Assembly (NCBI GenBank): GCA_946699065.1
Contig: CAMPDV010000317.1
Span: forward strand, 62,001 to 126,000
Length of the DNA: 64,000 nt
Direction of reading: 5' to 3'
DNA from: Loxodes magnus
Lineage: Eukaryota > Ciliophora > Karyorelictea > Loxodida > Loxodidae
The notes under the pieces were generated by a model. That model was given only the letters and a program-made list of their open reading frames with translations, was not told the DNA's origin and searched no databases. Numbering within the stretch: the first letter of the stretch is position 1; every line of letters begins with the position of its first letter. Position numbers and translations under genes: made by a program. Positions 1 to 64,000 of this stretch are shown here, one piece after another.

Positions 1-1306
1 TTCAATTTATAACCTAATATCATTAACTATAGTTAGAGTTATACCTAATTATTAGCATAATTAAAATTGCTCCTTGGTAGTTTATCTTGGTTTTACATAT
101 GAATATGTTTATTAAAAGATAAAATAGAAATGCTTACTGTTTTTGGACTCAATTTAATTAACCTCTCAATCTATAAAAAATCCTTTCTCCAATCCTTTTA
201 CTCTAAGTAGGCATTAAGCCTGCGCTTATATTTTCAGTTTTAATACTTTAAGTTCTTAAACTCTTTTAGACTGGTTTTTATATAAAGATTTAGCTTTCAC
301 TATTATCCCCTATATGGTTTTTTGAAGCATATTGAAATATATTAGTTAGAAAAACAAACTAGATTCAAGAGATATACTTAAATGTTTAGCTATGGTATAA
401 TACATTTTTTAATAAGCAGCCAAACTTAAATAAACAGAGTCTTTAATTTCTAAGCTTAATGATAGATAATAAAGCTATTAATCAAATCCTGGATAAAAGG
501 TGAATAAAATACCAGAGAACAAGAAGAGAATCAACTATAAAGCTCTTTTTTGCTTATCTTTATATTTAAGAAATTAAATCGTAGGATTAGGATAAATATC
601 AGTATCCAATAGATTCTAAGAGAAGCTATTTAATCCAAATTTTCACTTTATAGTGATATTTTATTTTATACTTACTAGCTAATAAACCAAAAGCTCTTAG
701 CCTTCTTAATTGAAATACTGAAGAAAATTTCTATTTTTGAAGCTTTAAATTTACGCATTATTTGCTTAAATGGTTTTATCAGCTCTTCCTTTATTTTGAT
801 TTATGAATTTCAAGCAAGATTAATGAAACAAGGATAAGAGTAGAAAAGCTTCGTTTTTAATGAATTTTATAACTTTTTAGAATATGCTAATTAGGCATTT
901 TTGCCTGATTTGCTAAATTGGTCTATAAATTCAAACTTATTAGATATACAAACAGCTATAGCTAAGTTTAAAAGCTATCTCAGTTAATTTCTTATTCATT
1001 TAACTTCTGAAGCCTCTTAGTTCTAAAAAAAGTAACTAAGGTAGTCTAATTTATACGTAGCTCTGTTCAAACTGCTAGACTTACCTCTCGTTGTTGTTTA
1101 CTAGTGAGGAAGCATAGAGTTGAAGCAGCTTGCTCATGAGTATTGTTAGGAAATTGATAGATATTATTAAATATAAGCAGTCAAAATCAAACTGTAAATT
1201 GAGATTTAAATTTTCCGTTAAAAATCCGTTAGAAAATTTCGTTAAGAATCGAAATACGGATCATTTTCTGGGTATTTAAGGGAAAAAAATAAAATTATAA
1301 TATTCA
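1..1306. other. 5' spacer upstream of histone H3, no secure gene
   Basis: I find no convincing gene here. A frame from ATG 459 on the plus strand stays open if TGA is read as Trp, but it meets TGA about every 28 codons and its composition is that of AT-rich spacer. The last 100 bases before H3 hold a cluster of CGTTA motifs, listed separately. Confidence 0.5.
1216..1244 (+). promoter_or_regulatory. CGTTA motif cluster upstream of histone H3
   Basis: CGTTA occurs three times within 29 bases (1216, 1227 and 1240), twice preceded by TC, in otherwise AT-rich DNA 63-91 bases before the H3 start codon. A role as a histone promoter element is inference from position and repetition only. Confidence 0.3.
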
Positions 1307-1723
1307 ATGGCAAGAACGAAGTAAACTGCAAGAAAGTCTACTGGTGGTAAATAACCCAGAAAGCATTTAGCTACAAAAGCAGCAAGAAAAACAGCAGGGT
1401 AATCCAAGATGGAATAAGTGAAGAAGACACATAGATATAGACCTGGTACTGTTGCATTGAGAGAAATCAGAAAGTTCCAAAAAAGCACTGATTTACTTAT
1501 AAGGAAACTTCCTTTCTAAAGATTAGTGAGAGAAATTGCCTAAGATTTCAAGAGTGATCTTAGATTCCAATCTCAAGCTATTTTAGCTCTTCAAGAAGCA
1601 GCCGAAGCCTACTTAGTTGGACTTTTTGAAGACACAAACTTATGTGCAATCCATGCTAAAAGAGTTACTATTATGCCCAAAGATATACAACTCGCAAGAA
1701 GAATCAGAGGAGAAAGAACCTGA
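1307..1723 (+). CDS. Histone H3 variant
   Basis: This core nucleosome histone is 138 residues plus TGA stop. With TAA and TAG read as Gln, the frame starts [15 protein letters not shown] and runs without a break to RIRGERT. The core helices are almost canonical ([55 protein letters not shown]). K4, K9, K14 and K27 are kept. The tail is unusual: A15 is Gln, Q19 is His, S28 is Thr, and the usual APATGGVKKPH stretch is replaced by AGQSKMEQVKKTH, which is two residues longer. Cys96 is Ala and Cys110 is kept. At least six Gln codons are TAA, so the frame is invisible under the standard code. There is no intron. Calling it a variant rather than the bulk replication H3 is inference. Confidence 0.97.
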
Positions 1724-2046
1724 GTGACCTTTATAATTAATTTAATTAGTTATGATGCTTTATTTATAACTTCCGCTTTCTAAAATTCTATCTTTCAACT
1801 TCTTTTCTATTTCTACTTTTATAAATTCTTAACCATACCTGTTTTGGTATTTTAAGTATTGCTATTACAAGCTAATATAAAAGCCTTAAATTTTAAGAAG
1901 GAAATTCCCTAATTGAGGTAATCAAATTTTTTATTGTGCATTATATGAAAAAATAGATTAATGAGGTAGTATTTGGGCTTTAAAGACCTAAACTTACCAT
2001 GCTTAATATTAAAAAATTGAAGGTAAAAATTATTTAAAAGAAATCT
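1724..2046. other. Spacer between convergent H3 and chitinase genes
   Basis: This is a 323-base AT-rich intergenic stretch between two stop codons that face each other. It contains a small hairpin, ATACC (1835-1839) with GGTAT (1846-1850), which could act in 3'-end formation. No coding signal is seen. Confidence 0.5.
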
Positions 2047-5000
2047 TCAGATAAAAGCTTTCAATATGCTCACTATTGAAATATTATTTCCTTCGTACTT
2101 ATCACCACTCCATCCTGTTCCATCTACTGCTAGAACATTCACTCCATAAGCTGTTAGAAGATTAACAATGTTGAAGTTTTCTAAATCACATGCAATATGA
2201 AGAACTGATTTTTAAGTAACTGGATCAACTGTATCCGGATCTGCTCCTTAAGATAAGTAGAGGTTTGTAAAAGTAACGTCGTTATTTTTTATAGCATTCA
2301 ATAACTTCTGATCTTATTCTTTTAATTGGTCTCCATTGCTTTATATGATAGTTTAAGTTTAGTTTTCAGGTTATGAACTCTGATTTGTGGTCTATTTTCC
2401 TTGCTCTGGTTATTATGGTGAAGTTTACTGTAGTTGCTAGTTTAAAATTCATTATATGTTCATGTCACTTCCGTCGTACTTACTAGCACTCCATCCTGTT
2501 TAATCTACTAAGTTAATATTAGCTCCATATGACAGCAGTAAGTTAACATTATTAAAGCAAGATAGATCACAAGCAATATGTAAAACAGATTTTCCAGTTG
2601 AAGGATCGATAAGATTAGGATTAGCTCCCTACGATAAATAAAGATTTACATAAACAGCGTCATTTTAATTAAGCGAATTGAGTAGCTATTTATCAATTTC
2701 TCTTAACTAACCTTTCGTTTAATTTGACTAACCTTGCTAGTCATTATTTATTTCTGTTACATTAGCATTTTAGAAGCTCTTTTGAGTAATACTAGGATCA
2801 GATGTACTATTGTTCTACTAGTTTTGCTAAGTAATGTTTTAGTCAGTTTGACTAGGATTCTATTAGTTTTACTAAGTATTATTTTGAACTGGAGGATTGG
2901 TATTTTATTAGTTTTATAAAGAAGTATTTTAGAAGGTTTAATTGGGATTTTGCTAATTTGGCTAGGTATTATTTTGGAAAGTGATACTTGTATTCTATAG
3001 ATCTGAGTTCTAACTAATGTTTTAACTTTGCTATAAGATAACGAAACTATTTCTTACTAAGGATTACGACCCTTCTAAGTCACCTTAGCTTTCCCAAAAC
3101 ATTATTCCTCCTAATTAATTTTATAGAATATACTGATTTTTAGCTGTGTTTGATCTTAAATCATCATATGAGATGAAAGTACCATCTGCTGTACATATAT
3201 AAGCGCTTTAAGTTTCATCCTAGAAATGGTAATTTTAAGAATCTTTCAATTAATTGATTTGCTTATAAAGTAAGGTTTCATCTCCATTTCCACTTTCGTA
3301 AAGCCCGAATAACTAGCTTTTACAGTTGACTCCTTTTCACTATACGCCATATAATGGGGTTCCAATTACAATTTTGCTTCTTTGCATCCCAGATTGGATG
3401 TACTTCTATACAGATTCGTTTACGTTTGATTTACCAACGAAATCACTTAGTTATTTATCGCGAGATGAGGCAAATAAAGGTGAGTGATGATTAGTTGTGC
3501 ATTCCCATTTGCCATGAAAATCATAAGCCATTACATTTACCCAATCTAATATCTAGTTCATAAGTGGGATTTGATAATTGTCTACCTTACTATAAAGTGC
3601 TTAACTAGCAATGGTTAGCAATTTACTTGGTCCGATCTAATTTCTAATTTCTTGCATTAACAATCCAAAGTCTTAACTTTAAGCTTCACTTGGCCACTCC
3701 CAATCTATATCTACTCCGTCAAACTAATATTTATCTAGAAACTCTCTAATAGATTATGCGAAAATGACTCTATTCTAATTACTTGATGCACATATTGGAA
3801 ACTAAGAAGACCAAGTTCATCCTCCTACTGAAATCAATGTTTTAACATTTGGATACATTTATTTATACTTCAGCAGTTAATAGAAATTTCCCTTAAAAGG
3901 CTGGTTTGATGTATCTCCTTCAAATTATATGTCAACATCAGCCCATTAATCTCCTATAACTATTTTGCAATCAGATCCAATATTAGCAAAAGCGTAGTTT
4001 ATGTGTGTAATTGAATCCCAGGGGAGGTTACTAATGAAATGGTTTTTGTAAATGGACCATTAAGTGAAATACACTACTACTCTATTTGATTAACTTGGAA
4101 TTTTTCCTTCCTATAACTAAGTTATATTAACCTAAGTCTAGTTCTACTAGGTATTAGTACCTTAATCTTCTGAGTTTTGGTTGACTTTACTTTATGTGAT
4201 TTATATAGGATTTTAGTTTTAAAGCATTTTGTAAGAATTAGCTACCAATGACAGTTCATTTTTCATATCAGCTGAAATTTCCCAATACATTATACCTCCA
4301 AGTTAGTTTTGAGTAATATAGGTACATTTAGCAGTATTAGCTTTAATATCATCATATGTAATAAATAGCTTTTAGGATGTACAAATGTAAGCACTTTGGG
4401 TTTGATCATGGAAATGGTAATTATTCTAATTTCTTATATTCTGCTCTATATCTTTATAGTCATATACTCCAGCTTCCCAAGTACCTTTAGGATCAGCTGC
4501 AGCAGTTTGGTATAAACCAAATTCATTGTTATTGCAATTTACGTTTGCTCATGATCTTCCATATATAGGAGCTCCCATAACCAAAAATTTACTTTAGACT
4601 CCTTTATTAATAAATTCCTTCACAGCACTATCAGCTGATCACAATAAGCCTTTTTCTTTGTCGTAATCAGAAACATAAAGTGGGGACTAATGATTAGTAA
4701 CTGTGTCCCATGATCCATGAAAATCATAAGACATTATATTGATCCAATCTAGCACTTGCATGATAGCAGGAACGTCTAAATTTGCTATTTTTGCAATATC
4801 AGCTGAACTAGCAATTGTAAGTAGCTTATCTTATCCAATTTTCTGTCTAACTGCTTACAGTAGAAGTGTGAATTCTAGTTTTTATTCAGCTTTTGGATAT
4901 TCCCAGTCAATATCAACTCCATCAAACTAATATTTTACCATAAATTCATTTACAGACTAAGCAAACTTCTCTCTGTTTTGCTGGTTTTAAGCACAAACAG

Positions 5001-63596: not shown

Positions 63597-63614
63597 AATA
63601 CCTTGTCTGGTATT
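63597..63614. repeat. AATACC/GGTATT hairpin
   Basis: AATACC (63597-63602) and GGTATT (63609-63614) with a 6-base loop, the same arms as the hairpin at 58111-58130. Confidence 0.35.
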
Positions 63615-63684
63615 ATTTTTTAAATAAGGTGAAAGGAAATTGATTTAGAAAATAAATTGATTTGGTGTTGTCAATGATTCAATT

Positions 63685-63963
63685 ATGCAGAAAAATAATC
63701 ATTACCCTAAAAGGTTTTATTATTGGGTTGCTGAAATAAATCCTTTAATAGAAGGCTTTATTCTTGAAGGATCTTGGCATATAGTGAAAAGTTTTGATTT
63801 GCATGATCACTTTATTCAACAAATATAGGATTCTAGAAAGAGAATTTTAAAATTCAAATGCATTCTTATAAGTATTAACGCTAGATAAGGAAAAAAGCAT
63901 TTCATTTATTTTATTAGTCATAAGTATAGTTCATCTAATAGATTCATTTTACTATATCTTTGA
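63685..63963 (+). CDS. Possible small protein or gene fragment, 92 aa
   Basis: ATG to TGA with no internal TGA. The first half reads MQKNNHYPKRFYYWVAEINP, then GFILEGSWHIVKSFDLHDHF, with two TGG Trp and a natural residue mix. The second half is more spacer-like, so an unseen intron or decay is possible. No family was recognised. Confidence 0.35.
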
Positions 63964-64000
63964 TACTCTTTTAATACTTCTAGCCTTATTTGTAAACTTA

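What the first reader, a model, noticed from the sequence alone, without database searches (positions are those of the whole stretch)
1..64000. All three standard stop codons are read as amino acids; TGA is both Trp and stop
Every recognisable protein needs TAA/TAG = Gln, and conserved Trp positions in unrelated families are TGA: the K+ channel pore FYWTLTT (36325-36327), GH18 GGWTW (5020-5022), SPX W15 and EXS WGL of XPR1. Yet H3, FAM136A, the chitinase-like protein and others end cleanly at TGA. This is the ambiguous code described for karyorelictid ciliates, and it means termination must be set by context.
Basis: partly seen in the sequence, partly recalled or inferred. Interest (0 to 1): 0.85.

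Follow-up and report, generated by a model that had tools for sequence, protein, structure and literature searches.

The report
Loxodes ciliate's known ambiguous stop codon

Summary
With TGA blinded to X, 7 of 8 TGA columns with a majority residue in two GH18 domains and a CNG-type K+ channel are Trp; the eighth is Tyr/Trp. TGG columns, as a control, are Trp in 14 of 17. XPR1 adds three conserved Trp columns. The same codon ends the window's histone H3 (1721-1723), and an in-frame TGA follows the conserved end in 27 of 28 histone-fold genes read in the same assembly, that H3 included. TAA falls on Gln5, Gln68 and Gln76 of H3.

The assembly (705,730,643 bases) matches the published Loxodes magnus macronuclear assembly of 706 Mbp. 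That paper already states that UGA is Trp or stop depending on distance from the poly-A tail. The finding is therefore the known karyorelict code (NCBI table 27).

My additions are modest. eRF1 carries E55A, T58R, S60Q, S70A and Y125F. A tRNA-like arm with anticodon CTA exists. Two to three genes appear to end at TAA, without TGA where relatives have one (L075, L122, weaker L118). No transcript data were available.

The parts
1307..1723 (+). Histone H3 gene, 138 codons, TAA at Gln5/Gln68/Gln76, terminal TGA at 1721-1723
2047..5394 (-). Protein with two GH18 domains and an ankyrin-like tail (ankyrin by eye, not by Pfam); internal TGA = Trp at 5022, 4551, 3819, 3339 (5148 Trp/Tyr; 4641 unconserved; one more in the tail not tested); terminal TGA at 2049-2047
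5020..5022 (-). TGA at the Trp of GGWTW (Trp in 97% of 120 homologues)
29867..31903 (-). XPR1-like SPX-EXS phosphate exporter; internal TGA = Trp at 31861 (SPX W15), 30184 (DWGL), 30073; four further internal TGAs not at Trp columns; next in-frame TGA 29866-29864 is a candidate stop, not tested
36013..36822 (+). Cyclic-nucleotide-gated K+ channel exon; TGA = Trp at 36226, 36262, 36325 (pore FYWT); 36151 not conserved
36325..36327 (+). TGA at the pore Trp (Trp in 89% of 122 aligned rows)
39053..39454 (+). FAM136A/DUF842-like frame (start codon not settled) ending at TGA 39452-39454
41642..56842 (-). Long coiled-coil-like frame, 5,066 codons, 3 internal TGA (44794, 49615, 54016) and 8 TGG, 397 TAA and 268 TAG, terminal TGA 41644-41642

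Best explanation
The window is nuclear DNA of the karyorelict ciliate Loxodes magnus, using the ambiguous karyorelict code: TAA and TAG are Gln, and TGA is Trp inside genes and stop at their ends. Shown here: TGA sits at conserved Trp positions and also at conserved C-termini in the same genome. [quoted passage not shown] near the mRNA end, short AU-rich 3'UTRs bring poly-A and its binding protein close to the ribosome, and eRF1/eRF3 wins. The eRF1 changes seen here, S70A among them, fit that picture but were not tested.
For: Blinded codon inference: W in 7 of 8 majority TGA columns; XPR1 Trp columns (and PDB alignments, where the W15 stretch is not significant by itself); NF-YC-like Trp as TGA in L087, with the aligned codon in L088 also TGA; the WDTAG Trp of Ras-family genes is TGA in 4 and TGG in 14 of 20 genes, the other two having Y and L. 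Terminal TGA: 27 of 28 histone-fold genes, the window's H3 included, and 19 of 21 Ras-family genes with a readable cysteine tail, out of 40 examined. GC of the 60 nt after TGA: 0.27-0.42 for 9 TGAs taken as sense and 0.17-0.23 for 4 stops in the window; mean 0.20, range 0.13-0.28, for 28 genes. Literature: PMC11441545 passages, PMC4967479 passages, PMC13092985 passages. Assembly size 705,730,643 against 706 Mbp.
Against: No transcript, ribosome-profiling or peptide data for this window. The nuclear tRNA-Trp gene was not found with my patterns. Species identity rests on size, code, GC and literature; the 18S search did not complete. Some TGAs are not at Trp columns. Three genes lack the expected terminal TGA.
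Confidence: 0.95

Rival explanations
1. Ordinary ciliate code 6 (TGA always stop): the internal TGAs are introns, sequencing errors or pseudogene lesions.
For: Loxodes introns are very short (mode 17 bp), so some stray TGAs in open frames can lie in introns; 8 of the window TGAs looked at are not at Trp-majority columns.
Against: The conserved TGAs fall exactly on Trp in conserved blocks, recur in both GH18 domains, and lie in genes with otherwise readable frames. TGA also replaces TGG at one position across paralogues (4 against 14 in Ras-family genes).
Confidence: 0.02
2. TGA = Trp only, with true termination elsewhere (Blepharisma-like TAA/TAG stops).
For: Two to three genes seem to end at TAA.
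Against: 27 of 28 histone-fold genes and 19 of 21 Ras-family genes with cysteine tails have TGA at the expected end, while TAA/TAG are frequent inside genes.
Confidence: 0.01
3. Condylostoma-like code: TGA and, less often, TAA (perhaps TAG) are both sense and stop in this organism.
For: L075: GEKHLTDM-TAA-TAA-TAA, next in-frame TGA 177 codons after the domain match, where paralogue L007 has TGA at the same place. L122: CNC-TAA and no TGA in the 25 further codons read, where L108 has CNC-TGA. L118: CEKCLIF-TAA, the 60 nt after the cysteine motif 8% GC, next TGA 22 codons on. The Loxodes paper reports UAA depletion before stops.
Against: Three genes only, no transcripts. A short intron could hide a downstream TGA (in L122 a GT...AG of 25 nt can be read by eye; in L075 one of about 47 nt). 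TAG shows no such sign; it sits next to terminal TGA in L095 and L096.
Confidence: 0.35

Closest known systems
Karyorelict nuclear code, NCBI table 27 (Parduczia, Loxodes and other karyorelicts; Swart 2016, Seah 2022, Seah 2024)
   Same: TAA/TAG = Gln, TGA = Trp or stop, AT-rich DNA after stops; very probably the same organism and assembly
   Different: Nothing in the main claim; the published statement that UGA is the only stop may be too strict for two to three genes seen here
Condylostoma magnum code (all three codons sense and stop)
   Same: Stop codons read in genes and terminating near mRNA ends (passages)
   Different: Here TGA is the dominant stop; TAA at most a minority; no sign for TAG
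Blastocrithidia code
   Same: UGA = Trp through 4-bp-stem tRNA-Trp and a change at eRF1 Ser70; extra UAA after the true stop reported (passages)
   Different: There UAR = Glu and UAA is the only stop; eRF1 Ser70 is Gly there and Ala here

Membership tests
Karyorelict code (table 27) | TGA encodes Trp inside genes | tested here: met
   7 of 8 majority TGA columns W; XPR1 3 of 7 TGAs, all three at invariant Trp; NF-YC-like L087; Ras-family WDTAG 4 TGA, 14 TGG of 20
Karyorelict code (table 27) | TGA is the codon at conserved C-termini | tested here: met
   27 of 28 histone-fold genes read, of 31 matches; 19 of 21 readable cysteine tails of 40 Ras-family genes; eRF1
Karyorelict code (table 27) | TAA and TAG encode Gln | tested here: met
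   H3 Q5, Q68, Q76 are TAA; TAG at one GH18 column that is Q in 94%; CTA-anticodon tRNA-like arms. Weak in the GH18/CNG column statistics
Karyorelict code (table 27) | UGA is the only stop codon | tested here: inconclusive
   L075, L122 and L118 look TAA-terminated; no transcripts
Karyorelict code (table 27) | Short 3'UTR and depletion of coding UGA before the stop | tested here: inconclusive
   0 TGA in the 30 codons before 28 ends and 2 in codons 31-40, but this is partly by construction, since the first TGA after the conserved motif was taken as the end; UTR length not testable without transcripts
[quoted passage not shown]
   Nuclear tRNA-Trp not found with patterns; reported for Loxodes in the literature
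Weakened-eRF1 mechanism | Substitution at eRF1 Ser70 and other stop-reading residues | tested here: met
   S70A, E55A, T58R, S60Q, Y125F in L073 by alignment to 4d5n_A (human numbering counted by me); functional effect not tested
Loxodes magnus macronuclear assembly | Assembly size and species markers | tested here: inconclusive
   705.73 Mb against 706 Mbp; 18S search unanswered

The most novel reading that the evidence does not exclude
In L. magnus UAA is a genuine second, minority stop: a few genes have lost their TGA and end at TAA (in one case three tandem TAAs), so two codons are ambiguous, intermediate between the karyorelict and Condylostoma codes. This would also explain why UAA, but not UAG, is depleted before stops.
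Probability: 0.4. Interest if true: 0.4.

Novelty: already known. Interest (0 to 1): 0.22.

Why it matters
It is an independent confirmation of a published ambiguous code on one contig and its genome. The possible TAA-ended genes would, if true, give named genes in which to test how an organism shares stop duty between codons that also mean amino acids.

Tried and rejected
Unsupervised codon-usage gene finding: the first run was seeded out of frame, the second drifted to call nearly everything coding, the third found only the GH18 gene; none is used for counts. Pfam scan: 50 translated frames were given, 49 of the 57 picked plus one frame (2-2998, -) given by mistake for 1-3000 (-); 9 of 50 had a hit; the rest gave none and were not studied further. 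One search failed halfway on a frame error of mine; one search is the corrected run.

tRNA-Trp: the pattern had the wrong spacing (30 hits, control 24). One search gave one AT-rich hit (L071, control 0) that ARAGORN does not accept; I read it as a mitochondrial-like fragment. One search gave 3 hits (control 0): two with anticodon CTA and one TCT by my reading, none Trp. The Rfam tRNA search scored only 63 of 42,786 candidates; six of the loci were run through ARAGORN, each showed tRNA-Lys(TTT), one also tRNA-Ala. ARAGORN and Rfam found nothing in the window.

A PDB search with the long XPR1 frame found nothing at 0.001; the trimmed frame did. The third homologue search gave only 3 proteins.
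Full report
What the window is. It lies at G000:C317:62001-126000 in an assembly of 705,730,643 bases and 7,843 contigs. The published Loxodes magnus macronuclear assembly is given as 706 Mbp, with UGA as Trp or stop, short introns, CDS at 33.5% GC and 3'UTRs at 18.6% GC (PMC11441545, passages). Window GC is 26-30%. I take it to be L. magnus by inference; the 18S search did not complete.

Check of the open frames. Under the standard code no stop-to-stop frame of 150 aa is listed; under table 6 there are 184, on both strands, many of them overlapping and so chance. 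A Pfam scan of 50 translated frames gave hits in 9: histone H3, two GH18 domains in one frame, PIP5K, M24 (SPT16-like), BAH (below its cut-off), SPX and EXS, ion channel, cNMP-binding, DUF842/FAM136A.

Meaning of TGA. All TAA, TAG and TGA codons were turned to X. The two GH18 copies were aligned to the same 120 homologues and the CNG exon to 120 others, 124 aligned rows; the corrected run is. Ten TGA columns had enough rows; eight had a majority residue: W in seven (5022, 4551, 3819, 3339, 36226, 36262, 36325), Y with W second in one (5148). Two had no majority (4641, 36151) and one more was covered by only four rows (36019). TGG columns were W in 14 of 17. The other codons printed gave six W-majority columns; with 400-500 columns assumed as the total, chance is between about 3e-13 and 4e-11. 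PDB alignments show the same Trp columns. In XPR1 (29867-31903, -) seven TGAs were seen: three at Trp conserved in all three homologues (31861, 30184, 30073), the latter two also in a significant PDB alignment and the first in a stretch not significant by itself; one at Phe (30793); three unconserved. Outside the window, an NF-YC-like gene has TGA at its conserved Trp (L087; L088 has TGA at the same aligned codon), and the Trp of WDTAG in the 20 best Ras-family genes is TGG in 14 and TGA in 4, with Tyr in 1 and Leu in 1. One H2B paralogue has TGA where another has Arg.

Meaning of TAA and TAG. Blinded H3 places TAA on Gln5, Gln68 and Gln76, one on Ala15 and two in a variable loop. A TAG in GH18 is at a column that is 94% Gln. 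Column statistics for TAA/TAG in GH18/CNG look like those of CAA/CAG but are not decisive alone; in XPR1 they show no Gln preference among three homologues. Two places in the genome carry a tRNA-like arm with a CTA anticodon, which would read UAG (anticodon read by eye; the full tRNA could not be fetched).

Stops. Of 31 histone-family matches, 28 were read, the window's H3 (L002) among them. Twenty-seven have an in-frame TGA 3 to 29 codons after the last conserved motif. In those 27 plus eRF1 no TGA occurs in the 30 codons before the end and two occur in codons 31-40, which is partly by construction because the first TGA after the motif was taken as the end; TAA occurs 1, 3, 0 and 4 times and TAG 2, 4, 3 and 6 times in the four 10-codon bins counted back from the end; the 60 nt after the stop average 20% GC. 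Of the first 40 Ras-family genes by E-value, out of 150 listed (721 candidates), 21 have a readable cysteine tail: 19 end at TGA within a few codons, 2 do not; 3 more end Tyr-TGA; 16 could not be read, I think because introns or longer tails intervene.

Genes that seem to end at TAA. L075, an H3 variant, reads GEK HLTDM TAA TAA TAA and its next in-frame TGA is 177 codons after the domain match; paralogue L007 reads GEK QLTDV TGA and L006 GEK HLTDM TAA AAT TTA AAT TAT TGA. L122 reads SCNC TAA with no TGA in the 25 further codons read, against NCNC TGA in L108. L118 reads CEKCLIF TAA; the 60 nt after its cysteine motif are 8% GC and its next TGA is 22 codons on. Introns, pseudogenes or assembly errors are not excluded; by eye a 25-nt GT...AG can be read in L122 and one of about 47 nt in L075. 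I recall, without having it to read, that the abstract of Seah, Singh and Swart 2022 says a small minority of karyorelict transcripts may use stop-UAA; the 2024 genome paper calls UGA the only stop but reports UAA depletion before it.

Mechanism. eRF1 (L073:1456-2763, 436 aa, no internal TGA) keeps GTS and NIKS; among the residues named for stop reading it differs from human at E55A, T58R, S60Q, S70A and Y125F, with C127 and F131 kept (numbering by my count on the alignment). Its stop TGA is followed by two more in-frame TGAs within five codons. A change at Ser70 and a 4-bp-stem tRNA-Trp(CCA) are the published route to reading UGA as Trp in Blastocrithidia, and the short-stem tRNA is reported for Loxodes (passages), citing a paper I did not see. 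I did not find the nuclear tRNA-Trp. The choice of stop by nearness to poly-A is the proposal of Swart 2016 (passages).

Verdict. The only part with some novelty is the set of TAA-ended candidates.

Noticed in passing
L075 (C327:221690-222034 +), L122 (C30:480454-480936 +), L118 (C42:664446-664928 +): Genes whose conserved ends lack TGA and have TAA instead; candidates for minority TAA termination.
   Followed up: partly
window 2047-5394 (-): One protein with an N-terminal hydrophobic stretch, two GH18 chitinase domains and, by eye, two ankyrin-like repeats at its end, an unusual architecture.
   Followed up: no
window 8863-11070 (-): PIP5K domain preceded in the same frame by hydrophobic segments (by eye), like the GPCR-PIP5K fusions known from other protists (resemblance recalled).
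   Followed up: no
window 41642-57238 (-): Coiled-coil-like frame of over 5,000 codons, very rich in Gln, Glu and Lys codons, with only three internal TGAs.
   Followed up: no
G000 C78, C103, C158 and others: 63 tRNA hits scored, most with one identical score; the six checked are tRNA-Lys(UUU); some lie in tandem arrays spaced by about 527 or 1,752-1,753 bases.
   Followed up: no
L073:1456-2763 and G000:C196:54613-54981: Two eRF1-family matches 34.9 kb apart on one contig; only the first was read in full. Its stop is followed by two further in-frame TGAs.
   Followed up: partly
G000:C245:190891-190925 (-) and 229207-229241 (+): tRNA-like arms with anticodon CTA, probably tRNA-Gln reading UAG; the first has a mismatch in its anticodon stem.
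   Followed up: partly
L083 against L081: H2B paralogues with TGA in one and an Arg codon in the other near the N-terminus, a TGA outside any Trp context.
   Followed up: no
L071: AT-rich, degenerate tRNA-Trp(CCA)-like fragment, perhaps of mitochondrial origin.
   Followed up: no
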